A stretch of 64,000 bases of DNA, taken from contig JAULBX010000226.1 in the NCBI GenBank assembly GCA_032358255.1, positions 95,948-159,947 of the forward strand, read 5' to 3'. The position numbers were made by a program, and so were the translations under genes. Source of the DNA: Heterotrichella gracilis. Lineage: Eukaryota; Sar; Xanthophyceae; Tribonematales; Xanthonemataceae. Shown here piece after piece: positions 6,801 through 59,800 of this stretch; the stretch's first letter is position 1, and the number at the start of each line of letters is the position of its first letter. The notes under the pieces are model-generated. The model was given only the letters and a program-made list of their open reading frames with translations, made no database searches and was not told the origin of the DNA.

Positions 6801-9800
6801 CTTACCCCAGCATCACACACCAAGCAAAGGAACACTACCAGCCCAGCAGGCCACTTGCGGCATGCATCAAGACTCATTGATATAACATGAAAAAACGGTA
6901 CCCATGCATACAACCTAACCCCTAATACCGTACCTTGAGCCTCCCTGGCTGCAGTTGGTCGCCGCGAGCACATCCACCAATCCACCATCCTCCTTCCCCC
7001 CTCCTCCTCTGCCCCTTCCTCTACCACCCCTTCCTCCTCCCCATCCACCACCCCCTCCTCCTCCCCTTGCACCACTGCACCCCCCATCCCTGCCCCTGCC
7101 GCGGCTGCAGGGGGGGCGCAGTCGCTGAAGCGCGCTTTGTACAGCGCCTCCATTTGTTCCAGCAGGTGTGGTGCCAGGTCAGCAAAGGAGGCCCGGGCTT
7201 CAGTCAAAACCACATCCAGGTTGGCCAGTGCTGCAGGGGGAGGGGGAGGGCGTCAGCCTTATGTGCCCACGAGGTGCTAGGAATCCTACCAAAAGATGCC
7301 AGTGTTGTATGCAGGGGTTTGCATACTTGAGACCTGCTGCGGAAGCTTATTTTCATGGTCGTTCTCTCAATCTGTGCAGGAGAGGGGGCAGGGTTCCGTG
7401 CACATGCAGAGGAAGCGCCAAGGCGGTGCCCCCACACCACAAGCCCTAGGCAGGTAAACAGGGCAACTTCCCCACCACCCTTCCCTAAACCCTCCCACAC
7501 CCTGCGATCGCGCACCTGTCATCATGCAGTGCGTGGCCAGCACGTGTGCCCCCGCCACGTCAGCATACCCCAGCAGCTCAAGTGCGGTGCGCGGGCCAAC
7601 CAGGTGACTGGCCACGGCACCCTCACACAGGCGCTGCAGGGTAGGGGGGCCGCAACCGGGCGGGCTGCGCCAGGGGAGGGTGGTGGCGTCACAAGGAGGG
7701 GGGTGCCGAGTGCTGAATGGGGTACAGGCACGTCAGCTGACGGTGTGTGCGGCTGGGATGTTAGGCCAAAAGCTGGAGTTTGCATAAGGCATTGCGGTAG
7801 ATTGGTGTGTTTGTGTAGGGCGCACTTATCTGTGGTGGATACGCTGATATTTTTATTTGTACGGTGGTAAATGCCAGCATGGGTGCGCAACGTCGGGACA
7901 TGCTCAAGGAGGGAGTGCGCAAATACAGGGAATCTAGAACATGCGGGCGGGTCAACCAGCATGCCACCACCAACCCCCTCCGCACCACCCACCTTTCCCT
8001 GTCCTCCCGCTCCCCGCCTCCCCCCTGCATCAACGCCCCTGACACCCACTCCTCCCACACACGCAACAGCAGCCGCTGGCGGCGCAGGGGGTCCCCACCA
8101 CCCTCCGCACCCTCCCCACCCGCCACGTCAGCATCATCTTCATCGCTGACATCAGCATGGGGGTGCTCTGTTGCCTGCTGACAGTCGCTGGCTGTGGTGG
8201 TGGTGGGTGTGGATGTGGGTGTGGCTGTGGGTCCCACACACCATCTCTGGACCAGGAGGGAGTGCTTCTCCCCCACCGCCACCCCAGTTATCCTTTTTGC
8301 GCCTTCCACCCTGGGTGATAAGGGGGTGACCTACTTACGCTACATCCCATGACGCAAAATTCATCATGGAAACACTACACCGCAAACCTCAGGCACATCG
8401 CAGCACGATCTCCCGCATACTTCATTGTATCTAGTACCCCTTGTTGTTAATCTGACTGGACTGCCGAAACGCATGCATGTCAATAGCCCTTCCCATCTAA
8501 TGCACATGCCACACGGGCTCAGCTGAACATGCATTTCTCCTCCCCATGCAGAACCCCACCTGACAGGCACCACCGGAGGGAAGGGCGGCTCCCGCTGTGC
8601 CCTCTTCCGCACGCTGACCTGGACCAATGGCGCCTGGCCACTGGCCACATCACTCGCTGAGCTGGCATCCCCTGGCCCCGACAAATCGACTGCTGACACG
8701 GTGTTGGGCAGTGAGGCGACGTGCTTGAGGGAGGTCGAAAGGCGCCCCAGGGGCGGCTTAGGGATGGTCGCATTTTTGTGGGGATCGCAATCCCACATGA
8801 ACACATCCCCGTCAGCCGTCACTGCTGCGGCGCGGTCCTTGCCTGCGGGGAGCAGGGGTTGGGATGCATTTGTGAGGGTATTCGTGGGGTTTGTGCAGTA
8901 TTGTGTGGGGTTTTGTGTCCGATTCGAGTTGTCGACAAGATGCAGAGGCCCTACATCCCAATCCCCTACCCCTTCAGAAATGCGCACCCACCCCCAACAC
9001 CTACAAATCCCCACCACCCACTCCCATTCCCCAAAACGCACCGCCCGCCCTATCAGTCCCCCCTCAACCTCCACTGCCTGCAACTCCGCACCCGCCGAAC
9101 GCCACACCAGCACCGCCTCGATGGCCTACAAAAGCATGGCTCTCATCTACCCCCACCACCCCCGCCACCACCCCACCCCCAACCCCCACCACGCACCGGC
9201 CGCCACCGCCACCACCCTCCGCCCAGCCAGCCCCCCGCCAACCTCCATTGCCCGCAGCTCAGCATCCGCCGACCGCCACACCAGCACCTCCCCGGTGCTT
9301 GTGAGGGCGAGGGAGTGCATGGCGCCAGCCGCCACCGCCACCGCCAGCGGCCGCACCACCTGGCCGCGGTGGAACTTGATGCACTCGGGGCGGTCGCCCT
9401 TGACCTTCATGCGGCAGGCGTCGCGCGTGCCTGTGTGGGGAGCGAGTTGAGGTTGGTCAGGGTGGGGTGGGGCTAGAATTGCAATGGAGCAAGGTAAATG
9501 CAATAATAACAGTCCTGCGAATTTTCATAAAAACATTAGATAGAAGTGCACTCCCGCCTGTCCCTAAAATACAGTGTAATACCCATGTCCCTTCGTTTCT
9601 TTTGTTGTAGTTTCTATGCCAAAGGGTAAGAATCGCAGCATCAATTTCCACACTGAACTCATTGCCACAAACTCCCATTATTGGGTCTTGCAACCACCCC
9701 TTTCCCCACCTCCAACTTCACCCTTGTGAGCCTCGCCACCGTAATCCCCTCGTCACCAAAACCCCACCCACCCCTCCCACCCTCCACCCCCCACCTGCCA

Positions 9801-12800
9801 GCTTCACTCGAGTGGGCGTGACCACCCTGTGCCCCCAAGTGTACACGTCGCCCTCCTTGGTCACAACCACAGTGTGGCGCTTGGCGGCCGCCGCCCCCAC
9901 CACCACCCTCCCCCGCACCCCCTCCACCAGCCTGGGGGTGCAGTTGGATGAGGAGTCGCTGGTGCCGTAGCCCAGCTGGCCATCGCTGTTGCAGCCCCAG
10001 GAGAACACCGCACCTGCATGGTGGGAGTGGGTTTTAACGTTGTGGGAGGGGAAACCCGCGGGGGCAGAGTTGTGCGTCATGGCCATCGCCATCGCTGTTG
10101 CATCCCCAGGAGAACACCGCACCTGGGGGAAAGAGGAGGATCCATGTGAATGGTGTGTGGGTGCATGTGGGTGTGGGGGGGAGGGGTGTGGGAGGGCGGG
10201 AGGGGGGAGGGAGGTTGACACGGCTGTGCATGTGTTGGAGTGGGCGGGGGGGTTCATACGGACAGGGCTATGCATGTGGGGGTGGGGAGGATAGGGGTAC
10301 AACGCCGGGCTCAACTGCATTGTGTGTGATCCTCCATGCCCACACAGGGCATGCGGGGGAAGCATGTACCATGCATCATGTGATCCACCGCCACCACCAA
10401 AGTCCACCCCCACATTCAACCACAACCATCCCACCCACCATTGGTAGCCACCACCACGCTGTGCTTATTGGCCGCAGCCACCACCGCCACCCGCTGCTTC
10501 AGACCCCCCACTCGCCGGGGGGTGGCCTGGGTGTCCACCGCGGGGTAGCCCAGCCTCCCCTCCCTGTTGCTCCCCCACGAGTATACCTCCCCCTGAGCAG
10601 TGGCGATCAGGGTGTGGTGCTTGGCGGCTGAGAGGGAAACCACCTGCTTGCGGCCCAGGCCGGATACCAGTCGGGGCAGGATGACTGCGGCCTCGCCAGA
10701 GTGGATGTCAAATTCGGGATGGCCTGTGGGTGGGTGGGGAGTGGGTTGTGATGTGGGATGCACACAGCAGTGGTGGGTGGCGGGGGAGAAGTAGTGCGCC
10801 AATATAGCCTAGCATATTGCCTAGCATGAACATAGCCAGGTGATCTGGCGCCAGACCAACAATGGTCATGAATGTAGTGAAACAGCAATTACTATTTGCT
10901 TTACACAGTGCCAGGGCCGATCTTCTTGACACTGCATGTGCAAGACTGACCACTAATCTGGCTGTATTGCCGGCTAAATTGCTGGAATGTGTGTAACCGC
11001 TTAACCACCCAAGGCGCCAGCCCTGCACCCCACCATTGCCAGCCACCCGCAAAACTCATCCCCACCACCCCACCCCACGCACCTAGCCGCCCGCCGCGCC
11101 CAAACCCCCACGTGTACAGGCGCCCATCCTCCCCCACCCCCGCGCTGTGGAACTTTGCAGCAGCCACCGACACCACGCCATGACCGTGCACCGCATCCAC
11201 ACGCACAGGCGCCCTCTGGAGGCCTAAGGGGGGGGGAGGGGAGGGCGTGACAACTCACGCAGGGTTGCATGTCAGTTTTCCGTAGGGTTGCATGTCAGTT
11301 TTCTGTAGATTTGCACATAATAAATTGTAAACAGGATTGTGCAGCATGCTGATCGATGGTTCAAGATGTGTTCGCGTAAAAATGGGGTTTTTTATGGAGT
11401 AACACTTTTGCAAAATCTTTTTGCCCCTCCCATACACGCTGTGGTTACGGGGGTTCCAAACCAGCAAGCATGAAATGAGGACAGAAATTGCAATGCGGGT
11501 GCAAATTGTCAACATGATACGCCGGTACGATAGCCCACATAGGGACATGTAATCGTGTGCAATAGCCACGTACCCGTGGAGGTTGTCCCCAGCTGGTAGT
11601 TGGCCCCATTGCCAAAGCTGAACACCTCCCCTGCACCCCCCTGTGCACTCATCCCCTTGGCAAGCTCCTCTGAAACAAGGTCTGCTGGCAGGCGGCCCTA
11701 AGATAGGGTACATGCGGCGTGGGTTTATGGGGAGATGGGAATGCAAAACGGCGCTTGACTGCGGCATTAGGTGATCAGGGCTGTAAGGTGGCATATGGGT
11801 TGTGCCGGAATGCATTAATATTTACTAGTTGGATAAATGGGTTCCAGCAATACATGTTATAGGCTGTGCCACCCAGCTCTAATTGGCGCCGCTTATGTTC
11901 AACATCCTTAACACTCAGGGCAGCCCAGAAGGTAATGCGTCTATGATAGCAACAGCCCTGTGACGCAGGAGGCATTTAGCAGATGGCAGCGCAGTTGACA
12001 GCAGCGCGCACCTTGAAGCCCTGTGCGTTAAGGCGCGCCCCTTCACTGAGAAGCAATTTAGGGTTTATGATCAAGGGTTTAAGGCTGCAGCGCGCACCTT
12101 GAAGTCCTGTGCGTTGAGGCGCGCCCCCTCGTTAATGAGTCGCGCCGCCACAGCCAGGTGACCCCAGTACAGGGCGCGGTGCAGGGGGGTCCTGCAACAA
12201 GTGCACAATAGTGGACTCATAGGATAGAGGCATGGGGTGAGATGCACGTCAACATGGGCACTTAGTTGGGGCTGGTGCTGTAGAAAAACAGCAACAGATA
12301 TGTGGGTCCAGTTTAGGGTCGAGGAGGGCTTCCCAGGCCGGCATGGGCACGAGCTTTTGCTGGGATGGACACATGCCTCCCGCAACTGCATGCAGTGGGC
12401 ATTGCGCCGGGCATCACAGTGCTCGATGCAGTGCACCAGCAATACTGTCACCTTCGCCCGTATTAGTGTTTTATCCCACCCCACGCAAGGGTATTGCCCC
12501 AGGGTGCACACAGGACGCGCCCATGTACAGGGCATATACTGTGCTTGACTGCATGCATATATGCGGAAAACAACGACTGAGTGGACGCATTGCTCCTGCA
12601 TGGCTTTGCAACGCACCATCCTGACTCGCCATCTGGTTTGTTCAGCAACTCCTTGTGTTCCAACAGGGCGTCCACCGACTCCATGTTATTCGCAAACACC
12701 TGGCCGTGCAGAGACCGTCAGGTCAGAAAACAAGGTTGCAAACCCATGCCTTCAAGACAAACCTGCAAACCGACAGGTGCTGAAAATACAGACTTACCGC

Positions 12801-16404: not shown

Positions 16405-19400
16405 ATGATGAGCACGCAACAAAGGCGCATTGCTCAGGTGGTGGGCCATCTGCAGCCATCGCCGGCAGGTGAAGCCGCCTCCACCACAGGACTGGTGCTG
16501 GCGCCCACTGCTGCAATACGGTCTTTGCCCCGCTTTGACCCCACCATTCTGGAGGTGTACCTCGATGACCAGCGAGAAGTGAAGCTGGAGATTTACGAGC
16601 TGTTCAGGCAGCACCCAGAGCTCCTGCCCCCAGTGGAAGAGGGGATGACGAAAGGTGAAACCACCAGGTTTCAACCACGCCTGGGATATGCCGCCGATGT
16701 GTGTTGAATCGTAGCAAGAAACCATACAAGCGTACCTTTATTGGTGACATCAATACCCAGTTGCCCTTGGATGTCCTGAATTTGCTTTCGGAAGGTGCCC
16801 ATCTGAAGATGCATCGTGGCTGTGAGTCAGCCTCTGGGAAGCGATTTCACACCCGTGGCTGCAACCTGTGCAGAGGAGCACCGGGAGCTGGTGAGGAAGT
16901 GCCTACGGGTCCTCCTGGACGCTGGCTTCAGCCCCATGAAGTACTTCAGCAAGGACCAGAAGAAGTACTTCTACATGGCAGAGCTGGCTGCGCTCATAGA
17001 CCTGTCTTTGGTGAGTGACAGACGGCATATGCTGGGCAGCGGGGTACCGTGCAGCAATGTATTAGTTATGGGGTGCTTTCCATTGTGCAGCAAGTTGAGC
17101 AAGTGCATCAGGCCTCTGAACACCAGTTGATGCTGCCTGGTTGGCAAGGGTTCATAAGATCCTGGATATGAGTACAACCGGTTGTTGGTGGGCATGAAAC
17201 GTGTTTGGCACGGCGCAGACTGTGAAGATGGGCGTCCAGTACAGCCTGTGGGGCGGCAGCGTGTTCAACCTGGGCACTGAGAGGCACAGGAAGAAGTATT
17301 TTGATGACATTGACAAGCTGCGCCTACCAGGTATATTGCCCGCTGCCATTATATGGCACAACGCCAGCACCGCACCAAATTCCTCTACACTCCACCAAAT
17401 TAAATCCAGGACGCACTTTGCTCAAGCCCAATGCCGCGGCTGCCATCAGGGTACATTAATTAATTTTGAGAAATATGTACGATAAACTAATGCAAGCCTT
17501 TGCACCCACCTGCAGGTTGCTTTGCCATGACTGAGCTGCGCCACGGCAGCAACGTGGCCGGGCTGCAGACGGAGGCCATTCTGGATGTGACCACAGATGA
17601 GTGGGTGGTGCACACGCCAGACGATGGCGCAATCAAGTGGTGCGTGCCCGCTGCCAAGCACCATGTTGTGGGTGCATGCTGGGAAGGCACAGCCAGCTGC
17701 CATGGTTGAAAACCTGGATTACAACCATTAATGGGTGCATATTGTTTGCCGGAATGATTGATTAGCAAAATAAGTACTCCATTGCCCAATTTCCATTATT
17801 TAAGTGCTTTGGATTGGCAATGAAGCCACGCCACACCCCGCGGAATACACAGCTTGCTGTGAAAGCTCCCTAGCTCCCTACCCACAGCCTCTTAAGAAGA
17901 TCCCTACCCCCCCAGGTGGATCGGCAACGCCGCGCAGGACGGCAAGATGGCCACGGTGTTTGCTCGGCTCAAGGTGCCCTCCCCAGATGGCAGCGGCGGC
18001 CTGGACGACCACGGCGTGCATGCATTCATCGTGCCCCTCAGGGGGGATAACGGCGATGCGCTCCCAGGGGTGGAGATCCGTGACTGCGGGTACAAGGTGG
18101 GGGGCGCGGGGAATGGGGATGAGAATGAGGGGGGCCTGCATGAGCTGGTGGGCGAGCGGGGTCCAGCAAGCATTGTCAGCGCATGCAGCCGCCTTCCACA
18201 TGCTATAATTCAATTTTCTTGTGCAGCAGAAATTGGATTTCTGATATCCCATTGACAAAGCACCGCCATACCACTAGCGCACCACCCACACCCCATGAAC
18301 CGACCCACACCACACCCAAACCGCCATCTTTTAAAATCACCCTTCCGCCCCAGCGCCCACCCCACCTCACCTCACCCCTTACTAAACCCTAGGTGGGCCT
18401 CAACGGCGTTGATAACGGCGCCATCAAGTTCCACAAGGTGCGGGTGCCCAGGGAGAACCTGCTGGACCGATTCGCGGCTGTGGACCGCAGCGGCAGGTAC
18501 AGCAGCCCGCTACTGTCTCCCAACAAGCGCTTTGCGGCCACGCTGGGGGAGCTGACGGGGGGGCGCGTGGGCCTGACCTGCTCCTCGGTGTCGGTGCTCA
18601 AGGTGGGTGATGGCTGGGGTGATGATGGTTTGGCGCTGGGTGGGGCAGTGGTGTGGGATAGGAGCTTGGTGGGGGGGGGCGTGGGGCTGGCAAGCTCTGA
18701 GACTAGGTTGTTGGCTGCGATGTTGGAGACGGGGAGTGGAGTATGCGAATGCCAGGTGGAGTATGCGAATGCTGTTTTTGGGTCTTCTTTGTCTTTTGAA
18801 CACTCATCCCCCACCCCCACCCCCCACAGGGCGGCCTCACCGTGGCCATCCGCTACTCCGCGCACCGCCAGCAGTTTGGCCCCGCAGACGGCGCCGAGGT
18901 GGCTGTGCTGGACTATGCCAGCCAGCAGCAGCGCCTGATGCCCATGCTGGCCACGTGCTACGCGCTGCACTTCACCATGCGGGCCCTGGTGAGCAAGTAC
19001 GTGGACATGAAGCGGAGCAGGAGCGAGGAGCTGGTGGCGGATGTGCACTCGCTGTCCGCAGGTGGGTGTTGGAGCCTGAGTAGGGGGGTTTGATTGGGGG
19101 GTGGGGAGTAAGGGTTGGGGAAGTGGGTAAATTGGTTTGGTGACATGTATGCGTTGCCTGGTGCTCAACTATGTGGACATGAAGAGGAGCAGGAGCGAGG
19201 ATTTGGTGGCGGAGGTGCATGCCCTGTCGGCAGATGAAGAAGGGTTTTGGAGCTGGAGTGGGGTTTGCTAGCTGTTGGCAAGCGGGTAGACAGCAATCCT
19301 GGTGAGGGTTTTGGACAAAGTGAGGCAGGATATGCGAGGGTTTCTACACGGTGTATGAACCCTAAACCCTACTCCTGAAGCCTGACCCGTGCCTTGCTTG

Positions 19401-31000: not shown

Positions 31001-34000
31001 GGCTCTTGAGCCAGGTGCGCACAAACGTCCCGCTTGTGGCCATGCCGCTGGAGCTCATTGAGCTGGTCACGCCAGGGGCAGCCAGGTCATCAGTGCACCT
31101 GAGGGGGTTGGTCAGGGTTTAGGGCTGTAGTGTTTATGTTCTGTGGAATGGCATTGAGGTGCATCTGGGTAAGGACATGATTTACATCCCATGATGGGAT
31201 TTCCTTTTAGGGTTTACGTCGCATGATGGGTAAGGGTTGACATCACCGTCAGTGCCAAGATAATACTCACTGACGCAACTTGTGCATGGCTGGACGCTGC
31301 CTGGCTGAATTGCTGGAGATGTATATGCATGCACCTAGCTACATACACATACCTGTGGAAGGTCTTGAGGCTCAGCCGCTCGCACAGCGGGTTGCACTCA
31401 TGGGTGCGGAAAAACAACGCCATCCCCCGCTTGCCCATGTTGCCCGCGCCATACGCCGCCCCGTCCCATGTGTGTATCTGGGGGTCGGTGTACAGGTCAC
31501 CCACCCCCTGGATGTCCACACACAGCTTGTCCCCGTTGGTCACCTGCCATGAAAAGTGGCTAAAGGCCTGGGGAGTGTTGCGCAGCACCTGCAAGGATGG
31601 AGAGCAGTCGGCTGGGGATTGTGAATCCTGCAAGTGGCGATGCTGCTTTGCCCTGCCCTGTGCTCCCGCTTTGCTTAAGCATGCAACAACAGGGCGTTAT
31701 TCTGTTGCTAGGATATGGTTTGGACGGGCCGCGGCATGTGATAACTCCTATTGACAGTCGTGTGCAACACCTGCCAGGGTGGCGTGTGTAGGGTGGGGGA
31801 ATAGCAACAGTGGGAAGCAGGCACGGCAACTGTTGAACATTTGCCCTGCAGCATGCGGACCTGCCCCTTTCCAAATGTTGCTGGAATGAGCTCTCAGGAG
31901 CAAGAAAAGGGGAGATATATAAGCACCTACACTGGTGACAATAGATTGACTTATATGGATCCCTGGCTCTAGAGCCATACCTAACCATTGGCTCGCACAG
32001 CCCAGCGCCCACGCCCCGCACCTCGTCATTTGCTACAAACCCGCTGTTTGAGTTGTACTTGATGTAGTCCCCCTCAATGAGGTGCTCCACACAGAACAGG
32101 TTGTCAGACTGGCCAGGGGACCCATCCCCATCCCCCTCCTCCTGATCATTGTCGTCAATCTCCATCACACAAGTCTGCGGGATGCGGGGGACGAGGTGCA
32201 TGCCGTCTTTTCACAGTGCATTGGATCATGTCAAGTTACATTGCATTAAATGGACAGTAACCTTGCCATGCGCCTGATGATTGTGCAACGAAGATGAAGG
32301 TCCAACAGCAGCCCGCACTTGAATGCAATGAAATACAAGCTGTCCACGCCAGGACCAACACCCTGCCTTCCAGTTCCTCTACAATATCCCCATCCCCAAA
32401 CGCATCCCCTTCCCACCCCCACCTTCCCCTCACCTGCACTACATCCATCCCCTTCCCAACCCCCCCTTTTCCTCACCTGCACCACGTCCACCTTCTTGGG
32501 CGGGTCGGTTTTCGAGTACAGCTCCCCCAGCGCCTTAGCATCCATCTGCAGCCGCACATCGTCAAAGTACACCTCCCGGGGGGCCGGCACCTTGTAGCGC
32601 TTGGCCACAAAGTTGGAGGCCCGCACCCAGTCGATGTGCACGCTGCTGGTGAAGGTGGACAGCTTCTTCATGGGGAAGCACTCGCGCATGGCCCCGTTGG
32701 CAAAGGGGCGGTCCTCCACCTTGACCAGGACTGTGGACAGGAGGCGGGTGAGAGCGTGTGGTAATGGTGTGCCACTAGTGGATTGGAATTGCTACGGGAT
32801 AAAAACGGGTGTGGGTGGGGTGGCCATGGGTGAATGTGGACAGCTTCTACATGGGGAAGCATTCTCTCATGCCCTCAATTCAAAGGGGCGGTCCTCAACC
32901 ATGACCAGGACTCTGGGTATGGGGTTGGGGTTGGAGGAGAGGGGCTAGGTATTGGATTGACCACTATCCCAATCACGTGGGATGCGATGGAGGACAGGGG
33001 TAGGATTTGATGCCAGCCCATTGTTGGCAGGATTTGATGGCAGGCCATTGTTGGTTGAAATGGCATGCAAGGATAATCAGTACATTATCTTTGGGGATGG
33101 GGTACTGGATAACCTGAGCATCAATAGCAGCGGTTGCAAAGGGGTGAGATGCTGGAGGTTGTGGAATACCCACCGCCTGTGTATGGCCATGCAAGAGAGA
33201 CCACGATTTCACTTGGTACATACTGAAAGAATGGTAGGATAGTGTGTAATAACACAGCAATGAATGTACATTTGGGCAGTCTGTGTGCTGACCTACACGG
33301 CAAAGAGCTGGGCATACCGCCCCCGTGTATGCGTACCTTCGTCTATCACCCACGACTGCGTCTGCGGGTTGAATCGGTGGCGTATGCACCTGTGCGGGTG
33401 CAGCAGGTGTATGCCCCGCTCCAACCAGGGGTCAGATGTGTGCAGCGCCAGCTGCATGGCCTTGTTCCACCGCCTGGCGGGGCTGCCTTCCAGCTCCACA
33501 AGCCTAGCCATATCCATAGTTAGGGTTTAGGGTTTTAGGGTTACGGGTAGGGTTCATAGGTTCAGTTCCTTCCATGCACAAGCTTGCACTGGTGAATGGC
33601 CCACTACAGAAACCAGTGGCGTACAGCATACTGAGGCAGAAGTTCAATGGCGTACTGGTAAAATAGCCTTGAAGCTATCTGGTTATTGATGGTGTGCGTG
33701 TGCGGCTTGGAGGCTACAAACCATCGCTTACCCGGTTGAGACCGCTTTGGTCAGGCTTGCTTGTTTCCGCACATTGATTTCTGGCAGCGCGTCGCCCTGG
33801 CTGAGTAGCAAAAGACTCTTTGCAACAACCTGCATGCCAAAGCCAGTGTCAGCAAGTTGGATGGCTGGCTGAGAACGACCCTTGCCAGTGCTGCCAGTGC
33901 TGCAAAGACAGCAAGGCACTTTGCACAGGACAGGAGGCTGCTGAAACTTAGTATGACTGCCCACCTGCACGGTTGCTGCCGTCCCAAAGTGCTTCTGGGC

Positions 34001-44479: not shown

Positions 44480-44561
44480 TAACAGGGCTTATACACACCA
44501 TTGGCTCAATAATCGCAGCACATAGCAGCAGCTTCCAGTCTTGGGCACTTTACAGCCTGCA

Positions 44562-46547: not shown

Positions 46548-47851
46548 TGTAGGAGTAGCAGGCATGCCTTCCTCTGACACAGCTGCGGCACTGGGGATGT
46601 AGAACACCCTTGTGCTGCACTGTACATGTGCAGTGTGTGGGTTGATGACCCAGTTACAACATGGTGCAAGGCATTGTTTTTGCCATAATGGGGCTGAGCA
46701 CCCTATTGTGGTAATTGACAAGGGAGTAAACTGCCAGTTCATTTTTTCTTAGAGGTTGAGGTGTACTAGGAGTCACGGAATTGACAGGTTTTCCAAGCAC
46801 AAATAATTGGTTGTTTGCTGGCGCATGGTGATCACTGCTACGATTATTGCGATGATGGTCACGATGGTCACCGCCAGGCATGCCGCAAGCTGCAAAATAG
46901 GGTGGTCAGAGCATTATGCAGACATCTGTTATTACAGCTTTATGCTCTACTGTTCTAGAGGGTAAATTCCAGAGCATGCCTAGTTGTAGGATGTAGATGG
47001 GAAGCTGTTGCCAGGTGCCACCGCCGGTGCACTCTGGAGACAGCTTGCTGGCATGTTATGCAATTTAAGGGTACGAAACGGGGACTTGAATTTTAGATTT
47101 GCTCATCGTTAACTAGTGTCAATAGGACAAACCTGTTTAAGCTGGCCCCATCATCTGAGGTTGCAGACCATCCAGAGCCATCACATGCCGGCATCCACAC
47201 GTGGCCATGCGGCGCTAGGCATTGAACTAGGGCGCTCCATGGGGTCAATGGTCAGTGCAAGTGATTTTATCCAACGGCATACAACGGGGCGGATATGCTT
47301 TCCATGAAAGCCTGACCAACAAAGGGAACATGCTGCTGAAGTGATCCTTGCCAGAGGATTCGCAGTAAGAAGCCATTACCCATATACTTAAATATATGGG
47401 TTTTATTATTTCAGAAAATGTTATTCCATCATAAAAATGTTTTGGTGCACCAGGTGACCTGTCAAAACCCAAACCTCTTGAAAACACAACTGCTCGACTC
47501 AATGTAAGTCGCTACCCAGTCCATATAAGAAACCGCGCCATTGCATTGTCTGACGAGACGGTAAGGGCGACGGGGCCCTGATTCCAAGCATGCATGCATA
47601 TCGAGGCAAGTGACAGCTAACAAACGCAGACCCACCTGTGTACCGTCCCCGTCTAAATAAGGGTTCTGATTATCTTGAGCGCTAGACGCGGGACGTATAG
47701 ATCGTGGGCCCTTTCCTTGGCAGCGCACCCTTACCCTTCCCAGGCATCTCCCTGCTTGGTGCTATCCAATTCACATAGCTCCACCAGAACAGCCAGCCAA
47801 TTGACAGTTGACGTTGCCTGCACAACCACACAGGAACAGCAGCAGCCTATC
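46548..47851. other. Intergenic between F-box copies 4 and 5
   Basis: No gene seen. An AT-rich patch lies at about 47385-47440, and the shared F-box upstream motif is at 47588. Confidence 0.4.
47588..47600 (+). promoter_or_regulatory. GCATGCATGCATA motif upstream of F-box copy 5
   Basis: The motif lacks only the first T of the version seen at the other copies and ends 252 bases before the start codon. Confidence 0.45.
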
Positions 47852-49477
47852 ATGGCCGCTTTACAGCCTGCAGTGGGAGCACACATCCACAACCTGCCAG
47901 ATGGCGTTCTGGCACAGGTACTCTACCGTACTCTGCCTGTTTCGAGCGTTGTGCACTGCTGCATTGCGTCTGGATTTTGTCATGTGTGCGCTGCAGAGGG
48001 TCCGGTCCACCTAGCTTCTTGACATCAGGCATTCCAACGTGCAACAAGCCTATCTGCTGAGGCAAGTGCACACAAAAGTGGTTTCAATAGCAATACCCCT
48101 CACACCGCAGGTGCTGCTGTGTCTGCCCGTGAACATGCGTGCCCAAGCCACCACCGTGTGCCAGCGCTGGAACAACCTGCTCAACTGCCAGGGCGTACTG
48201 TGGGAGCGGGTAGACCCAACTTGCTGGTTGTCAGGCGACAGGCTGTGCACGCACCTGTACCACACAAGGGACTTGGACTGCTTCGGCAACAGTGAGAAGG
48301 TGGTGCAGATGGTGGCTTCCCTGGCGCCTGCACAAGCGCAGTCCTGGCGCGTGTTCATAAGGCAGGAGACAGACACTCCACTCCTCCAGTGCTACAAACC
48401 ACTCCTTGCAGCGTGCTTTGGGCGCCTGCACCGGCTGCAGGCCCTGCACTTGATGGTGTTCTCAGCCCGGGTCACACATGGAGTACATGGGGAGCACGCC
48501 GCAATATCCCAAGGCACGGCAGATGTCATCACACACCTCACCCACTTGACAGCGCTCACCAGCCTTTCCTTGGGGTTGAGGCACGACACTGATTCGGACA
48601 CCAAGGCGATAGTCTCCTACCCCTTGCCCCTCCTACCCTCTGTGGTGGAGGCCGAATTGGAGGTGGATACTGGATCAATTGACGGCAACCCCATCCCAGC
48701 CTCCCTCTCAGCAACCTGCCCCAGCTGCGCAGCCTGACAGTGAGGGTGGAGGGTGCAGAGTTCATATTGGACATGCGCCCTGCAACCGCGCTGACAGCCC
48801 TCGAGCTGGATATAGTTTCCGCAGAGCTGAAGCTGCCTCATGGGTCATCACCCTGGTGGCCCGCTGGCCTTGAGAAGTTCACCTTTGTCGCCTGGGAACT
48901 TCACCCTCATGACCTGCAAGACGACAAGGATTGGGCACACTTTCTGCCGCCAGTGCGCGACCTGAAGCTCGTTAGTGCTAATGACTTCATTGAGTCACAT
49001 ATGCTGCCTCACCTGCCAACCACGCTCCAGGCGCTGACGGTGAAACCGCCGTGGGGGCTGGATGAGGAGGGTATGCAAGTGACCATCCCCACCTTGCCCA
49101 AGCTTGTCTCCCTTTCCCCGCCGTATGATGCATCCAGCTTGACCCTCACCGCCCCCATCCACCCTTATTTGCGGATCCACGACTCACCGCCCTTGCGGGT
49201 GGTGGGGCCAGGGTGGGAGATAGCGGTGGGGGCTGTCATCGCTCACGTGCCCCAGACCTTGTGGCAGGGGAGGCGCGTCAGGTTGGAGGAGCTGGCAGGG
49301 CAGCCGGTGGCGGGGGTGGATGATTGTGACAGGCTGGCTGCCTTGCGCTGGGTGCAGGGCCATGTGGAGGGGGTGAGTGGTCGCGATGTGGAAGTCCGTG
49401 GCAGCGTCACGACTCGTGCCAGGGCAATGGACATTGAGCATGCCTATGGCATAGTATGCTACGCTACTTCATGCTAG
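47852..49477 (+). pseudogene. F-box/leucine-rich protein, copy 5, frameshifted
   Basis: Exon 1 (47852-47917) encodes MAALQPAVGAHIHNLPDGVL and then AQ. Exon 2 (48111-49477) completes the F-box (VLLCLPVNMRAQATTVCQRW). At about 48697 the sequence lacks ten bases relative to copy 4 (CCAGCCTC joined directly to CCTCTCAGC). This shifts the frame and gives a stop at 48737. The remaining part is open in the new frame with family blocks (ALELDIVSAELKLPHGSSPW, LPHLPTTLQALTV, LRVVGPGWEIAVG, RLAALRWVQGHVEGV) to TAG at 49475-49477. The start codon, F-box and C-terminus are all well preserved, so the lesion is recent or an assembly error. Confidence 0.65.
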
Positions 49478-50588
49478 GGTTACGGTAAACTGGACTAGGC
49501 ATGATCGTTCATGTGGGGCAGTGACGGCAGGTGCGGCACTGACGGTGTCCACAGTCAGTGCACCTAAATTTTTCTGTCTGAAGCAGTAGGCAGCGCAAGT
49601 GCACAATGTGGGTGTATGGTACCCACAAGCTATGCCTTTTGCATGTCACCTGTTATAGTGATAACATATTCATATCTTTTTATTTTTATTTTTGCCTTGC
49701 CTCAGACTAGGAATGTCAAGGGACAAGCCCTTAACGAAGAATTGTCACAATTCTTCAAAGTTTGCGATTTGACGTGGCGCGCAATTTATGTTTTGCCATG
49801 ATACAATCAAATCCAATTTGATTGTTGCTATATATAATGAGCTAGCAGCTGCTGCTACATGCAGTTCTGGTAATAATATCTGACACGACCGGCACTGTGC
49901 CACTGGCACAACCCTGTGACAGTGGCTTCGGTCTCCAGTAAGGACACAATTTGACAATTGAACCGATGTTGCCACTATTACAGCGCAGCTAGGAAGCTGG
50001 TGCAGTGCTGTGTGCAATGTGTCAACATCGCTGTCATCAGTGATATATATATACTGTTGAAAAGAAACACAACCCGGTACCCACAACCGTTCGAACCTGG
50101 ACATGTGTGTTACTGTGTCCTCCGACCAGGTCCTTCCCACACAATAATCCAACACTGCCATTCCCTCTGATGGATAATATCACGCATGCACGGGTAGGCA
50201 ACCTGCAACAGGTCATGCCACATGAGCCAGCCATACACCTTCTCAACCCTTGCTGGCCAAAGTGTCAAAGTGCAGCCCATGTTGCTCGTAGAGCTCGACA
50301 AGCGCAGAGCGTGGAAACCAGCAACATTGATAAAACGTTCCATATCTTGGCCTTCTTGACATACGCCAGGCTCAGTGCACATGCGCCAAAGGGAACAGGC
50401 ACCGACGGGAATGATCAACTGCCCAATTAATGGCTGTACATGCACCCCAGCCCTGCCACATCAAAGGGTGTTGCCAAGCGCCACCATCACCCCACCTCAG
50501 CATCAAGTGCTGGCCCCTTTCCACACCGTTTCCACACCCGCTGGGTAAATATGGACACCAGATTTCCATGTCAGAAACCCACGCCATC

Positions 50589-50643
<55 letters not shown>

Positions 50644-50653: not shown

Positions 50654-50694
<41 letters not shown>

Positions 50695-51014: not shown

Positions 51015-53103
51015 CTACTGTGGCGGGCCAGGCCTGTATCCTGGTGGGGGCATGCCAGGTGGCATCATCCCAGGCCTCATGCCGGGTGGTGGGCCCATGC
51101 CCGGTGGGGGCATTCCAGGCCTGAAGCCGGGAGGGGGCATGCCGGGGGGTCCCATTCCAGGGCGCATGCCGGGGGGTGGCCCCATGCCCGGTGGCCCCAT
51201 GCCTGGTGGCCCCATGCCTGGTGGGGGCATCCCAGGCCTGAAGCCTGGTGGGGGCATGCCGGGGGGTGGGCCGCCCATTGGGGGCCTGGCGCCCTGCTGG
51301 GGGGGGCCGCCTGCACAGGGGGTGAAGGGTGGGGGGTCATGGGGGTTGCAAAATACCTGCTGCGTGCCTGGCCTCGTCTTAACGAAATGCAGCTATCTGC
51401 AGAAACCTGGTCCCCCTTTTGAGCCATGTAAACTCGGCGTTTCGACGTTCACAACAAGCCATGTCTCCCCCACAAGCTGCCCCAGGCCATTCTGTCAAGA
51501 CACTGCAGCACTCGACAACACCACAGTCCTGCACGATTCCTGAAATTGTGTAGCTAAGCTTGCATGATGTGTCGCCCTCACCTGGTGGTGGCATGCCTGG
51601 CCTGGGGGGTCCGCCAGGTGGCGGCCTCTGAGCGGGCACTGGGCCAGCTTGCATCTGTGGCCGAGGGAGCATCATGCCAGGGGCGGGGCCGCCCACTCCC
51701 CTTGCAGGGCCCGACAGACCCTGGAAATACACAGGGGACACATCAGTCGAGGCACGGGCTGGCACCCCTCATGGGCGCCCCCTAAAGCAGGTGCCGCTGG
51801 GGATGCAATCGCTTGTAGGTTTAGTTTGTGCAGCGTGGTGGTCTTTAAGTTACGGCGCAGACAGCCAGCAAATGCAGGGCAGGGACATTGACGACGAAGT
51901 GCACAGGCGAGCACATCTTAATTGGAGGTTGTGAGTTGGCCAGTGCAACAGGTACAAGGGAAGTGCGATCAGATGTGCCCAGGATAGTAAGGATCTTGGA
52001 GCAAAAGTTAAATAAATACATAGCCTGTCAACACACAGCTGGGTGGGCCACTGGAAGCCTGGCTGTACCCTACACAAGCAGCTATCGATGTCATTGAATG
52101 ACTACGGTTCAGTCTCACTTACCGCTGGTGCCTGGCCTGGAGCAGGGGCAGGGAGGCCGCGGCCAGCGGCCCGGCCCATACCGGGGCCAGCCTGCAAAGG
52201 CAAGTTACAAGAAGGTTCAGAAAGGGTATGCATAAGAGCATCACGCACGTGCAGGTGTGGGGTTCAAACCCACAAGACCAGGTTGGTCCAAAAGGACAGC
52301 GACAAGTGGGTGCAGAGGCCTGGCGCAGGCCTCTTTCCTCCTCAGAGAGACTTTGAGGGCAGGAGGTCCTGTGTTTATGACATGCAAGGGGAAGTGGTAG
52401 CAAGCGTGGTGCTGGGCGCAACGGGTTTCTACCAACACAGCAGCCACGTACCGCGCCAGCTTGTGCCTTTGAAAACCGCTCTTCTGACGGCGGAGGCCCC
52501 TCAATCGTGATGGATATCACCTCGTCACCCCGCAGGAGCACCATACCCAGCACTCTCCGCTCCTCCCTCTGCACGCGCACAGAACGCAGTTTGCATCGCA
52601 GCTCCCAATGCCATCAATTGAGACGCTTGAAAGTGAACCCAAGGCACCCACAAGCCATACAGCATATAACACCCGACGATCAACAGCAGAAAAGGCTACA
52701 AAGAGCACTAAGAGCGCACCTCATCTTCAGACTTGCCCTTCTTTGGGGGCAGTTTCCTGAACTCCTCAGTGTCCCCCAGCACAAGGTTCATGTGCCTGTC
52801 GAATGCCATAAACCTACACGTATGTGCGCAGGTTGAGTCAGAAACGGTTGGGCTGCTGCATGTTGTGCTGATGCAGCCAGGCAGGTGTGACTTGGCCTTT
52901 GCCCGTTGGGCCAGCATATGCATGCATGCAGGGGATTTACCTGCCCACGAGCTGCCTCCCATCCAGGATAGTTACCCGCATGCCTGCAACATAAAGGGTG
53001 GTTAGTGTGTGTTGAAGGCGAAACTCGCTAGTTAGCGGGCCAGGAACCTTTACTCACGGTAGTTGATGTATTGTAAGAGCTTGGATGTCTTAGAGATCGA
53101 CAT
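51015..53103 (-). CDS. Spliceosomal Sm protein B (snRNP-associated SmB/B')
   Basis: Seven exons (53103-53058, 52983-52941, 52813-52720, 52568-52452, 52191-52123, 51720-51582, 51310-51015) join in phase to 267 residues. SmB is part of the seven-member Sm ring on spliceosomal U snRNAs. The Sm1 motif (MRVTILDGRQLVGRFMAFD, RHMNLVLGDTEEF) and Sm2 motif (RRVLGMVLLRGDEVISITIE, GPPP) are clear. They are followed by the SmB-specific AGPGMGRAAGRG segment and a Pro/Gly/Met tail of repeated PPPGM, FRPGM and MRPGM units, as in animal SmB. The start MSISKTSKLLQYINYRMRV matches the family (SKMLQ..NYRMR). Stop TAG. It is divergent from the SSRP1 gene. Confidence 0.95.
51018..51280 (-). repeat. Minisatellite coding the SmB proline/glycine/methionine tail
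   Basis: Related units of 12-18 bases (GGCATGCCCCCACCAGGCTT and similar) repeat in frame and encode PGMPPPGFRPG and PGMGPP blocks. A larger ~75-base unit appears twice (PGMPPPGFRPGMPPPGMGPP). Confidence 0.8.
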
Positions 53104-53805: not shown

Positions 53806-56800
53806 ATGGCGGAGGGGGTGCAGCAATTTGGCAACATCCTGCTGGCCTCTCGGACGGGCTTGGTGAGTTGGCCAACTATGCATGCATATGCAACCTCGCC
53901 AGGAAAACTCCAATCACTGACCTTCCTGCCCCGCAGAGCTCCGGCCAGTTGCGGATTACCTCTTCCGGTTTCGTGTGGAAAAAAGTCAGTGGAGGCAAAA
54001 CAGTGGAAATCGCCTCTAAAGGTAATCCTTACCTGAATCCCACCTTACCAAGCTCTAGTTTTCCGAACGCATTAGCACCCATAAGGCATAGCAGGAAGAC
54101 CTTGAGCAACCAACAACCAAGGTCGTGTTGGCTTAAATACATATTCAGACTAAAGTGTCACGCCGTGATTGGAACACACCCATCTTGCAATATGGGCCAA
54201 GATCACCCCGCAGTACGGCATCCGCTGGATACCCACCCAGTATGCCTCAGACTCACGGCTTTATTGGTGAGCTTTGCGTACGTCACACTTGTTCTTTTAT
54301 CCTCACGCTGATGGGTTTCCCGTTTCAGATGTTGACAGCTTGGTATGGACACGCATCTCCCGGGGGTGCCAGCTCAGCGTGCGGCGAAAAGATGGGCACA
54401 CAACCAACTTCATAGGCTTCAAAGACAAGGTAAAGCTCCCACATTACAGCAGCGCCTGCACATTGGGATGGCGACACGTTGAACAGTAGGCTGGCGGCAT
54501 GGGCACCAATTGGCATGGCAGCACACGCTGTACACGGTGAATGACACATACATGGAACATGGACCTCAATGACTATGCAGCGCTGCATGTCCTGGCGTGA
54601 TTACATGGTTGATTGTAACCTTCTGCAGGATGTGGAGTCTGTCAAAGAGGCGATCAGCTCGTCCTTTGGACTGGAGGTGGAGGTGAGAAAACCCTAAGGG
54701 AGGTGGAAATCCCTAACGGCGCATGGCCAAATGATCATGGCCATAAAGTAGCCCAATGCTGATCTACCAGGACATGAAAACCTTGAGACGATCTATGTAC
54801 AGAAACCGCAAGTGATTCGGGTCATGTGTGCCAACTTGGGGCCCCGCCATGCCATCCTGACAAACCCCTTACATTTTTGTCTGCTCACCTATCTCATTCT
54901 ATTGCCAGTAGTTCACCAGCTACATGCCAACTGTCTTCAATCCCACCGAACAGAATGGTGGCAGGTGTCCGCCGCAGCAACGCATGCATGAAATTCCATA
55001 TGACACCCCGGTGCACTCTCCTCCTCATCCCGCTTCCGTATCCCTCTGCCAGGAGCAAGTGATGGGTGTGTCGGGCCGCAACTGGGGCAGCGCAACTCTT
55101 GAGGGTTCCTCATTGCTGTTCAAAGTGGCGGACAAGCCCACCTTCCAATTGCCACTCAAGGACGTGTCACAGGTGGGTACAAAGCCCTGGTCAAAACCCT
55201 AGCCATGAAATCCTAATCGTCCTCTCCCGTATCTTACTCTTTCATACTGTATAATACATACAGGCTGTAGCGCTGCAGCCTGATGAGGGATTTTGCCAAT
55301 ATATGAACCGCAGGCTGAAGGGTGTGGCGTTTGTGTAGCTGTCTTGTAAACCCAACCGTACGACCCAAATCATTATATCATGCTGTGCCTGCCACCCTCA
55401 CTGCTTCTAGGATAACCTGGCGGCTTGTGTCTACCACTGCTGCTGGCTTCGGCAAAATCGTAACCCTATTTGCGCATCTGGCAAGGTCTAAATGCTGCGC
55501 ATGCTGCCCATGTGCCTCCCTTACAACCCTCCATAACCCTTCCCAAAACCCTATCTCAAAACCCTATTAAGAACCCTTGCCTCAACCCCCGTTGCAGGTG
55601 AACCAGGGCAAGGACGAGGTCCTGCTTGAGTTCCCTGTGGATGACACCACGGGGGAGCGGGAGGACGCGCTGGTGGAGATGAGTTTCTACATCCCCAAGG
55701 ACAATCCAGACTATCCCGGGGATGAGGAGACGCCGTCGTACAAGGTGGGGACGGAGGCCCATCCACTGGCCATGAAAGTTTTGGGGTATCATGCAAGCGG
55801 CAAAGGATGTAGCGGGTGCATCATGGATCCAATATTCATCATGCATGGGCATAGCAGCTGACATATAAATTGGCTGGCATATTGCACAAGGCCTGCACTC
55901 AGGCCATGGACATGCTCACCCGTACCCCTTCCACCCACACCACCGTCACCTCCACCTCCAATCCCTCCCCCTCAACCCCGCCACCACCACTGCACCCCCC
56001 AGGCGTGCATGGACCGCCTGCTCCAGCACCCATTCTTACACACAGCCCCCTTCCCCTCCCCCATTTGTTTATTACTCTTTGTCAACCCCCAGGTGTTCAT
56101 GGACCGCCTGCTCCAGCACACCGACGTGGCTGCCAGCGTGGGCGAGGCGGTGGTCACCTTTGACAATGTGGCTGTGCTGGCGCCACGTGGCAGGTTCATG
56201 GTGGAGATGTACATGAGTTTTATGAAGCTGGTGGGACAGGTGAGAGGGGGAAAACCCTAGGGCTAGGTTCAAGACAGGTGACAGGAAACATAGGCTAGGG
56301 GGGTGGTGCGTGCTGGTGTGGGGGCAAGTGTGGGGGAACCCTAGCCAAGGATGTTGGTGTAACTGTGCTGGTGGGACCTGCTACCCTCCAGCCGACCCAC
56401 TGCCTGCCTCAACGCCTGTGCCGCACAATCAGAGCGCCAGCATTGCTCCCCATGCGATCCACCTCCCCTTTCCTTGACCCCACCCCACCCCCCACCACCC
56501 TGCAGAACCAGGACTACCGCATCCAGTACGACTCCATCGTGCGCCTGTTCCTGCTGCCCAAGACCCACACCCCGCACACCCTGGTGGTCATCACCCTGGA
56601 CCCACCCATCCGCAAGGGGAACACCTTCTACGCGCACCTGCTGTGCCAGTTCCACTCGGACGAGCACATCACAAAGGATCTGGACATCACACCGGACGGC
56701 CTGGCGGCCAAGAATGAGCAGGTGGGCGAGGGTTCTAGGGTTTTTGGAGCAGGTGGGTGAGGACTGCCTGGGCTGCGGCAGGGGCTTTGGGGGTTGGGTA

Positions 56801-59800
56801 GGGTTTTGGTGCAGTTGGTTTCCTCTCTATTAGTGGATCAGTGCGAAGTTTTTAATGCAGAATGTCTCAAGGACTGACATAGCGAGATCATTCTTGCCAT
56901 TCATTGGTCTGGGGAACACACACACTTGCTGTGCCAGTTCACTGGAGAGAGACGTCTGGTGAATCTTGGCATGCATTTGAACTTCCGGAAGTGGCGCTGG
57001 AATGTGCCACCATCAAGGGGGGGAAGAGGGTGGATAGTTAATTTTTTAATTTTCTGATACATGGGGAGTCCTTTGGCGTGGGTGCAATTGGCAACACCCT
57101 GACAGCCTGTGGGGAAGACTCTGGCATTTGCGCCAAGACGCTCCGTTACTAGGCAGGCTCCTAGCCCCTACCCACCCAGCCCATTGCCCTCCTGACCCCC
57201 CCCCCCTCCAACCCCTGCAGTGCGGCGGCAAGCTGGCGAGCCAACTTGAGGGCCCTTTGTTTGAGGTGTTTGCGCGCGCGCTGCGTGGCCTGGCCAACAC
57301 CAAGCTCATCAAGCCAGGCACATTCCGCACGGCAGACACGCTGGGCTATGGCCTCAGGTGCTCATATAAGGTGCGGGAAAACGCAAGGAAACCCTAAGTA
57401 TTGTATCTCCTAAACCGTAAGTGTTCAGTCTCCTAACTCTGCCCTGGATCTCCTTGAATGTGGCTGATGATGCCACATCAGCATCATGTGGCACATGATG
57501 CTGCAGATCAGATAGCCACATGATCTATCATGATCTAAACCTACATGTCCTTCATTCTCATCTGCGCAGATGCCCTTCCTGAATCCTACAACTTTCTTTT
57601 AATCTGGTCTCCTAACATTGCCTCTTTTCAGGCTGATGACGGCTACCTGTAACCCCCTTGCGCTCGCCTATTTCTATGTGCAAAAAGCCCCTGAAGCCCT
57701 AAACCTAAACCCTAATTCCTGAAACCCCCTTCCCCAGGCTGACGACGGCTACTTGTACCCCCTTGAGCGCGCCTTCTTCTACGTGCACAAGCCCCCACTG
57801 CTGCTGGTGCACGACGAGATGGAGGGGGTGGAGTTCATGCGCCAAGGAGGGGGCGCGCTGGCCAGCGTCAAGACCTTTGACCTTGCCATCCGCATGAAGA
57901 ACGACCAGGAGTACTTGTTCAGGGGCATCCAGCGGGGGGAGTGGGTCAACCTGTTCAAGTTCCTGCAGGTGGGTGGTGGGGTTGGCGGGAGTGATGGTGG
58001 TGGTGGGGGTGCAGTGGCGATTTTTTTTCCAGGGGGTATGGTGGTGGTGGTGGTGGTACTGGTGGTGGTGGTGGTGTGGTTGGCCATCCGCACAATGCAT
58101 GGCCAGGCATACCTGGTCAAGGGTGTGAAGTGTGGGGAGTGGGTCAACATGTACCCGCAGGTGGGTGAGTGTGTTGGGGAGGGTGGTACTGCCTGGGGTT
58201 ATTCACCCTTCCCCTTGCCACTTCACATGCCTGTCCCCTTGAGCTGGCCACTCTCTCCCCTCCCATCTCCAAACACCTTTCCATTCTTGCGCCTACCTGC
58301 TAGCACTTAGTCACACCTCCCCAAACGCAATTTTCACACTACCCTGTAAACCAATTTATTGTGTCAATGTCGTAGACCTGAATTTCACTATCTATGTGGA
58401 AATGTATCTAATTTTTCTCAACTTCCTCCTCTTGCAGGCCAAGCGTCTGAACATCGAGAACCTGCGCGAGGCGGAACAGGGCCCAGGGGGGGCGGGCCGT
58501 GCACTGGACCTAGGGGATGACATCGATGCAGGTTTTGCAAGGCTGGAGGCGCAGGTGGGTGACAGCTGGCTGATGGACAAGGGTTTCAGATGTAGGGTTT
58601 AGCACGTTTTAGGTCTTGTGTGACAGAATAACCGAACAGAGTAATGATGACAGCCCGCCGCAGCCCGAAGACCATGGGTCTTGTGTGCCACAACTCCGTT
58701 GATGTCAATTTCCCCGTCCACCCCTTGGCGTCACACACCCTTTCCCCCTTTGCCCAGGGCGACTCCGATGAGGAGGATGAGGACTTTGATGCCCAGGGGG
58801 GAAGCGATGATGATGACGACGACGACGATGATGATGACGCATCAGGCAGTGATGCGGAGATGGTGGAGGTGAGAGGCTGGCTATTCATTTTTTCTTTATC
58901 AGTTGGATGCATTCCAGCAATAGTTCCAGCAATACAGCCTAATCACCAGTCAATCTTGTACATGCGGCGCCAAGCAATCCGGTCCAGGCATTTGTTCTAC
59001 CCTTCATTTATGGGCTAGCCTGGTAGCACATCATTGGCGCGGCTGGAGAGCGATTTCAAATGTGTAGTTTCCGCATGACATACCCAAACCCTAATCTAGG
59101 GCATTGCTTACCCTTAGGTCGCAAGATCCTCCCTAAAGTCTCTCCTATGATATATGCATTGCACACACTTGCTTAGGGCATTTTGCAACATTTCTCCCCC
59201 ACAGGAGGATGCCCCCAAGCCCAAGAAGAAGCGGCCCGCTCCAGAGGCCAAGGCGCCCAAAGCACCCAAGGCGGCCAAGGTGGCCAAGGGTGAAGGAGGT
59301 CCCTCCCCTGCGGATGCCAAGGGGGGAAAGAAGAAGCGCGCCAAGAAGGACAAGGATGCGCCCAAGAAGGGGCTGTCGGCGTTCATGTTCTTCTCAAACG
59401 CTATCAGGGACCAGGTGCGGGGCAGGGGGCCAAATTGGGAATGTGGAAGAGTCTTGGTTAAAATTCTGTTCACTTTCTCATTCTCGGTGTCGTTCTCATT
59501 GTCATTGTTTATTCTTATTCTCTTTATTTTTCACCTCGTGTTTACATTGTATTCTCCATGCCCATGTTTATGTTCACGCCCCATTTCAGTTTGTTTTCTC
59601 ATACATTTCCGTGTCCTTGTCCTTGTTTTTTATCCCCAATCCCCGCTCCCACCCACCAACTCCTCCTGCAGGTCAAGGCCGACAACCCCGGCATTGCCTT
59701 TGGTGAGGTGGGCAAGGTGATTGGCGCCAAGTGGAAGGAGCTGTCAGCCGAGGACAAGGTGCAGTATGAGAAGAGGGCAGCGGAGGACAAGGTGCGGTAC

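What the first reader, a model, noticed from the sequence alone, without database searches (positions are those of the whole stretch)
9056..58160. Introns filled by decaying tandem copies of neighbouring exon-intron junctions
At least eleven introns or intron parts in four unrelated genes (IBTK-like, acyl-CoA oxidase, eEF2 kinase, SSRP1) contain a degenerate copy of the adjacent exon end plus its splice site. Donor-side copies follow the exon and acceptor-side copies precede it. Many have a stop codon, an indel or a lost GT/AG. This suggests frequent short tandem duplication across splice junctions, with the spare copy decaying inside the intron: a possible route of intron lengthening or splice-site shift in this lineage.
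Basis: seen in the sequence. Interest (0 to 1): 0.8.

Follow-up and report, generated by a model that had tools for sequence, protein, structure and literature searches.

The report
Introns grown by exon-edge duplication scars
In this 68-million-base genome, probably of a green alga, many introns contain a freely decaying spare copy of the neighbouring exon's edge, often glued in with telomere-like repeats, so faulty DNA repair at exon borders appears to be lengthening introns.

Summary
Introns resemble the edge of their own neighbouring exon in 40 of 714 tests; every control class gave none. Three contigs (314 kb) hold 140 direct but only 2 inverted local repeat pairs. Copies straddle the splice junction more than random placement predicts: 45 of 88 pairs against 18.3. 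Mismatches fit one constrained coding copy and one free copy: 10.4%, 10.6% and 20.3% at codon positions 1, 2 and 3. Introns with a ghost are longer, median 490 against 255 bases. Stops and lost splice sites are uncommon, not 'many'. Best explanation: break repair or template switching duplicates the junction, sometimes with telomere repeats added, and the spare copy survives because it is spliced out. Each ingredient is known; their combination, frequency and junction preference look like a new variant. Long repeats marking creation of whole introns were not found; short ones could not be excluded.

The parts
9039..9123 (-). ghost copy of IBTK-like exon segment 9213-9297, 3' of it in gene orientation
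   Evidence: 85 columns, 80% identity
10088..10125 (-). acceptor-side ghost (CAG plus 35 exon bases); real copy 9979-10016
   Evidence: 38 columns, 97% identity, 71-base unique filler; my gene model starts the exon at the ghost, the RCC1-type protein favours the other copy
12001..12044 (-). donor-side ghost (33 exon bases plus GTGCGCGCTGC) of real copy 12087-12130
   Evidence: 44 columns, 93% identity, 42-base filler with telomere-like word
19149..19267 (+). donor-side ghost of acyl-CoA oxidase-like exon end 18977-19092
   Evidence: 122 columns, 77% identity
19635..19658 (+). donor-side ghost of exon end 19566-19590
   Evidence: 25 columns, 92% identity
19705..19763 (+). second donor-side ghost, of exon end 19541-19599
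   Evidence: 60 columns, 80% identity
20204..20264 (+). donor-side ghost of exon end and donor 20119-20179
   Evidence: 61 columns, 80% identity
30534..30830 (-). three donor-side ghosts in a roughly 100-base array following the eEF2-kinase-like exon edge 30860-30930; telomere-like words between copies
   Evidence: pairs of 73-252 columns, 71-82% identity; telomere words at about 30733-30741 and 30834-30845
32829..32916 (-). acceptor-side ghost of eEF2-kinase-like exon start 32648-32736
   Evidence: 89 columns, 84% identity
55993..56029 (+). acceptor-side ghost of SSRP1 exon start 56083-56119
   Evidence: 37 columns, 92% identity, 53-base filler; my gene model starts the exon at the ghost
57629..57691 (+). 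acceptor-side ghost of SSRP1 exon start 57735-57795; filler holds CCCTAAACC-type repeats
   Evidence: 63 columns, 84% identity
58083..58185 (+). donor-side ghost of SSRP1 exon end and donor 57885-57993
   Evidence: 109 columns, 70% identity; my gene model runs the exon into it

Best explanation
The ghosts are scars of local DNA duplication. A break with long protruding ends, or a template switch at a break or stalled fork, copies some 25-145 bases spanning an exon-intron border a second time in the same orientation. The two copies are joined through filler, which in about a third of cases holds the cell's own telomere repeat (TTTAGGG), as expected if telomerase sometimes extends the broken 3' end. 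If the duplication carries the splice site into the intron, the original or restored junction can still be spliced and the extra copy plus filler leaves with the intron. The scar is then nearly neutral, the spare copy drifts, and the intron is longer. SHOWN here: the copies, their direct orientation, junction preference, roughly neutral drift, telomere filler and the intron-length association. INFERRED: the break-repair step, telomerase as source of the filler, and unchanged splicing.
For: Direct local pairs 140 vs inverted 2, and 18 vs 1 in eleven further small loci (these loci were picked by a repeat or by telomere words, and 15 of the 18 lie in two of them). Adjacent-exon matches 40 of 714 with zero in every control. 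Among 88 non-redundant pairs with filler, 45 pair a junction copy with a noncoding copy (18.3 +/- 3.8 expected by random placement) and only 9 are noncoding with noncoding (35.6 +/- 4.5 expected). The bias holds at >=90% identity: 13 vs 3.8, and 4 vs 11.6, of 25. Fillers with a 9-base telomere word: 26 of 88, vs 5.7 +/- 2.3 in matched random stretches and 6 and 8 in the flanks; 18 of the 49 junction events. Intronic telomere-like tracts flanked by direct repeats: 41 of 122 vs 78 of 732 random intron sites. TTTAGGG is the telomere unit: 209 exact (overlapping) 28-mers vs 0 for the reversed control, with arrays at the starts of contigs C70 and C140. Codon-position mismatches of 10.4/10.6/20.3% and 17.7% in the intronic part fit one drifting copy and one constrained copy. 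Paralogues: the shorter intron (151 bases as modelled) has one ghost; its paralogue has that ghost plus a further copy with telomere-like filler. Literature: protruding-end breaks give tandem duplications (PMC5730883, passages); telomere repeats are inserted at break repair, with target-site duplications in some cases (PMC2246262, passages).
Against: Non-telomeric fillers (7 of 7 tested) have no other match at E <= 0.01 in the assembly, in a search that skips common words, so their source is unknown. They could be ancestral intron with the ghost inserted later, rather than filler added by the event. Pyrimidine content just upstream of 33 acceptor ghosts (0.60, against 0.50-0.53 in intron interiors and 0.61 at true acceptors) favours filler added by the event but does not prove it. 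No microhomology or overhang signature was measured. The junction preference, and the short intronic part of most copies (k<=15 in 28 of 49, 15.3 expected), are not explained by neutrality alone. Splice dinucleotides are kept slightly more than expected (30 of 34, 25.3 expected). 7 of 29 fillers do resemble a flank, as true tandem units would. Exon-intron structure rests on my own gene finder, without RNA.
Confidence: 0.6

Rival explanations
1. Templated insertion: a break inside the intron is repaired by copying a nearby exon edge (polymerase-theta-like), so the filler is the old intron and only the ghost is new.
For: Seven non-telomeric fillers are unique in the genome search and the real acceptor keeps a pyrimidine tract (0.63 upstream of the real copy); direct orientation would fit copying from the opposite end of the break.
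Against: A copy inserted in an intron need not contain the splice site, yet 49 pairs are junction events and only 8 pair an exon-interior stretch with noncoding DNA; ghost upstream flanks are pyrimidine-rich; snap-back (inverted) copies are almost absent (2 of 142).
Confidence: 0.25
2. Telomere-like tracts already present in introns are fragile or recombinogenic and cause slippage or unequal exchange, duplicating the neighbouring exon edge; telomerase is not involved.
For: The second copy in paralogue B repeats exon edge plus telomere tract as a unit; C266:141713-142096, locus L036 and window 30534-30930 are arrays with telomere-like words between copies.
Against: 62 of 88 fillers contain no telomere word; at C101:32115/32187 a telomeric filler lies between the copies with none in the 60-base flanks shown.
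Confidence: 0.25
3. The ghosts are alternative or duplicated exons under selection.
For: Splice dinucleotides are retained in 38 of 42 ghosts, 30 of 34 when alignment ends are trimmed, 25.3 expected; in-frame stops 2 of 49, 6.4 +/- 2.2 expected under a crude model.
Against: Half of the mismatches (140 of 274) lie at codon positions 1 and 2; copies are partial (median 42 exon bases) and carry frameshift gaps in 11 of 49.
Confidence: 0.04
4. Chance similarity, low complexity or assembly artefact.
For: None found; the dust filter was on in the BLAST searches for pairs.
Against: Zero hits in the matched controls; codon-position pattern; seen on three contigs and in extra loci.
Confidence: 0.01

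Closest known systems
Staggered double-strand-break repair in new introns of Daphnia (PMC4202315, passages including part of the abstract)
   Same: Direct repeats within introns taken as scars of staggered breaks; proposed passive growth of introns.
   Different: There the repeats shared with an adjacent exon are 4-12 bases and lie at the opposite end of newly gained introns; here they are tens of bases, lie on the same side, include the splice site, and often have telomere filler.
Interstitial telomeric sequences inserted at break repair in mammals (PMC2246262, passages)
   Same: Telomere repeats at internal sites, with duplication at the site in 6 of 130 (rodent) and 4 of 25 (primate) insertions.
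   Different: Here tracts are concentrated in introns (11.1 vs 3.8 telomere-like bases per kb between genes) and 41 of 122 intronic ones are flanked by direct repeats, in many cases of exon edges.
Tandem genomic duplication as intron-gain mechanism (PMC3443670, passages; PMC4974935, start of abstract in a listing)
   Same: Local duplication of exon sequence next to a splice site.
   Different: That creates a new intron from AGGT-bearing exon; here a long repeat bridging both splice sites was not found.
Tandem duplications from breaks with protruding ends (PMC5730883, passages)
   Same: Offset nicks with 46-base overhangs give tandem duplications through end joining.
   Different: Laboratory breaks in mouse cells; no telomere filler or splice-junction preference in the passages seen.
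Direct repeats near intron borders (PMC11782384, abstract and passages)
   Same: Direct repeats near exon-intron borders attributed to break repair.
   Different: Repeats of 4-30 bases at both borders, read as insertion of whole introns.

Membership tests
Break-repair duplication with filler (protruding-end break or template switch) | Direct copies in the same orientation | tested here: met
   140 direct, 2 inverted
Break-repair duplication with filler (protruding-end break or template switch) | Filler absent from the ancestral, ghost-less allele | not testable with these tools
   No relative is held; the paralogue introns printed did not let me decide
Break-repair duplication with filler (protruding-end break or template switch) | Microhomology or overhang signature at the joints | not tested
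   Joints of telomeric fillers were only read by eye
Interstitial telomeric sequence inserted at break repair | Filler is the species' own telomere unit | tested here: met
   TTTAGGG arrays at two contig starts; telomere words in 26 of 88 fillers; not met for the other 62
Interstitial telomeric sequence inserted at break repair | Flanked by duplications more often than chance | tested here: met
   41 of 122 vs 78 of 732
Contiguous tandem duplication | Period equals copied length; no filler | tested here: not met
   For most pairs: median filler 87 bases among the 88 pairs selected for gap >=10; 7 of 29 high-identity fillers resemble a flank; some contiguous arrays exist (gap near or below 0 in the list)
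Intron gain by tandem duplication or staggered break | Direct repeat bridging donor and acceptor at the same offset | tested here: inconclusive
   Score >=10: 1 of 465 vs 0.17; score >=6: 40 vs 1.1 and >=8: 8 vs 0.25, which the shared CAG|G splice consensus may give (inference); so no long repeats, short ones undecided
Copy via spliced RNA | Ghost spans an exon-exon joint | tested here: not met
   1 of 398 joints, where only 10 bases of the upstream exon match
Transposon or introner element | Same element at many sites | tested here: not met
   Seven fillers and one event-rich 4-kb stretch matched only themselves; another 4.4-kb stretch had two ~94-base, 79% matches on C229 and C61, not examined

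The most novel reading that the evidence does not exclude
Exon-intron borders in this lineage are preferred sites of DNA breakage or template switching, with telomerase taking part in the repair, so intron growth here is driven by a repair process tied to gene structure rather than by transposons; C-rich telomere filler may also supply ready-made branch-point and pyrimidine-tract sequence that keeps the junction spliceable.
Probability: 0.3. Interest if true: 0.82.

Novelty: new variant of a known kind. Interest (0 to 1): 0.62.

Why it matters
How introns lengthen without transposons, and what break repair leaves behind in genes, are open questions for which clear cases are few. Here 37 of 357 tested introns carry a dateable scar with a constrained copy beside it, so rate, size, filler and survival could be measured genome-wide and against relatives. 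The link to telomere repeats suggests a testable role of telomerase in everyday gene repair.

Tried and rejected
Contiguous tandem duplication: 22 of 29 high-identity fillers match neither flank, 7 do. Spliced-RNA origin: 1 of 398 joints, weak. Intron creation: no long bridging repeats, short ones undecided. Fillers copied from elsewhere in the genome: none of 7. Alternative exons: disfavoured on codon positions. First gene-finder settings gave chains of tiny exons and were replaced; searches stopped on script errors. Searches for paralogues of two event-rich stretches gave no gene-length match elsewhere: none for one, two ~94-base matches at 79% on C229 and C61 for the other, not followed up; the useful tandem paralogues lie on C101 itself. 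Lineage comparison was not possible: I found no other eukaryote genome in these tools. The organism was not identified; 'green alga' is inference. In the listings of literature searches I saw no report of exon-edge copies joined by telomere repeats in introns; this covers only that library and those terms. The paired-nick work in plants (Schiml et al.) I know from recall and as cited in PMC5730883.
Full report
WHAT WAS CHECKED. The window is G000:C5:95948-159947 of a 68.5-Mb genome in 903 contigs. To see whether this is general I fetched 200 kb of contig C101 and 50 kb of C266. I wrote a gene finder trained on these sequences (of which 19 and 20 failed and 21 was discarded): 59 gene models, 525 exons, 466 introns, median exon 140 and intron 271 bases. 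It is not backed by RNA, it merges some neighbouring genes, and it sometimes swallows a ghost into an exon, as in several window cases, so ghost counts probably lean low.

THE SIGNAL. In 314 kb there are 140 direct and 2 inverted repeat pairs 40-350 bases apart (the 140 include redundant pairs within arrays; 88 remain after merging and requiring a gap of at least 10 bases). Eleven further small loci gave 18 direct and 1 inverted, but they were picked by a repeat or by telomere words and 15 of the 18 lie in two of them. Comparing each intron with exon edges gives 40 hits in 714 tests for the neighbouring exons and none in any control class; 37 of 357 introns tested carry a ghost (109 of 466 introns were left out). 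Ghost introns have median length 490, others 255; the ghost fraction rises from 0 of 37 (60-120 bases) to 10 of 25 (600-1500 bases). Longer introns also offer more room, so the length link is partly geometric.

ANATOMY. Typical structure in gene orientation is A-X-filler-X'-B, X holding tens of exon bases plus the splice site. Of the 88 pairs, 49 are junction events by my rule, 33 acceptor-side and 16 donor-side, with median exon part 42 bases and intron part 11; 8 pair an exon-interior stretch with noncoding DNA; the other 31 are mixed (coding repeats, noncoding pairs, mis-modelled ghosts). Fillers have median 87 bases, and a 9-base telomere word lies in 26 of 88, against 5.7 expected and 6 and 8 in the flanks. 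Telomere 12-mers occur 259 times against a mean of 0.2 for 19 other units of the same composition. Telomere-like sequence covers 11.1 bases per kb of intron, 3.8 of intergenic and 0.3 of exon. TTTAGGG is the terminal repeat: arrays open contigs C70 and C140. Of 122 intronic telomere-like tracts, 41 are flanked by direct repeats, against 78 of 732 random intron sites. Of four perfect (TTTAGGG)4 loci looked at, two (L036, L037) lie between such copies and two (L034, L035) do not (read by eye). In the last fifth of introns 24 of 30 tracts are C-rich on the coding strand; in the first fifth 21 of 38 are G-rich.

DECAY. Mismatches between exon and ghost, alignment ends trimmed, are 69/664, 71/668 and 134/659 at codon positions 1, 2 and 3; the intronic part of the copies differs at 182/1029. 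This fits one copy free to drift and one constrained copy that changes mainly at third positions; two coding copies would put most changes at third positions (my expectation, not computed). In-frame stops are 2 of 49 (6.4 +/- 2.2 expected if all changes were random and on the ghost, which I take as an overestimate, since some third-position changes belong to the exon), frameshift gaps 11 of 49, altered splice dinucleotides 4 of 42. Dinucleotides are kept somewhat more than expected (30 of 34, 25.3 expected), which could be residual selection or alignment bias.

JUNCTION PREFERENCE. Random placement of the same pairs predicts 18.3 junction/noncoding pairs and 35.6 noncoding/noncoding pairs; observed 45 and 9, and the skew holds at >=90% identity (13 vs 3.8; 4 vs 11.6). 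Ghosts next to a conserved exon stay detectable longer; I judge that this cannot give the whole effect at high identity, but I did not simulate it. Viability explains why a copy must carry the splice site; it does not explain why the intronic part is so short (k<=15 in 28 of 49, 15.3 expected). This remains unexplained.

HISTORY. Tandem paralogues on C101 (about 151-160 kb and 160-168 kb, merged in my model; BLAST pieces 69-86% identical) share an intron. Both have an old ghost after telomere-like filler; paralogue B has a further exon-edge copy with more filler, showing that copies accumulate in steps. Another B intron (518 bases, A: 180) holds a 97%-identical ghost; no such pair was found in A.

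MECHANISM. The best single account is local duplication at a break or template switch, joined with filler that can be telomeric, tolerated because it is spliced out. Whether the non-telomeric filler is new or old intron is open: the seven tested have no other match in the genome, and the flank upstream of 33 acceptor ghosts is pyrimidine-rich (0.60 vs 0.50-0.53 in intron interiors), which hints that the ghost sits in the original 3' splice context. Intron creation: a repeat bridging both splice sites scores >=10 in 1 of 465 introns (0.17 expected) but >=6 in 40 (1.1 expected); the shared CAG|G consensus may account for the latter, so only long repeats are excluded. Related facts from print: protruding-end breaks yield tandem duplications (PMC5730883); telomere repeats enter mammalian break sites, some with target-site duplications (PMC2246262); Daphnia neointrons carry staggered-break repeats (PMC4202315).

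VERDICT. It is a new variant of known repair scars rather than a new kind of system; the telomere filler and junction preference are the surprising parts. No other eukaryote could be compared here, so lineage specificity is untested.

Noticed in passing
window 10897-10973: A 65-77-base element in an intron of the IBTK-like gene has at least 38 other copies at 79-85% identity across the genome: a dispersed short repeat, perhaps a MITE.
   Followed up: no
window 39000-49500 and 1107-2444 (opposite strand): A tandem family of similar genes (67-73% DNA identity) with an inverted member at the window start; no Pfam match for the one fragment tested.
   Followed up: partly
introns of the three sampled contigs: Telomere-like tracts near the 3' end of introns are mostly C-rich on the coding strand (24 of 30 in the last fifth), where CCCTAAAC-type sequence could serve as branch point plus pyrimidine tract.
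   Followed up: partly
window 51028-51285: In-frame Pro/Gly/Met-rich repeats (PGGGMPGG type) within a predicted exon, unrelated to the ghosts.
   Followed up: no
C266:115936-116412 and 117065-117602 (L030): Junction-spanning tandem units of 186 and 207 bases at 88% and 94% identity, repeating exon plus intron pieces.
   Followed up: no
C266:105502-105595 and 103408-103492 (L029): Two stretches of about 85-94 bases with 79% matches on C229 and C61, perhaps a dispersed repeat.
   Followed up: no
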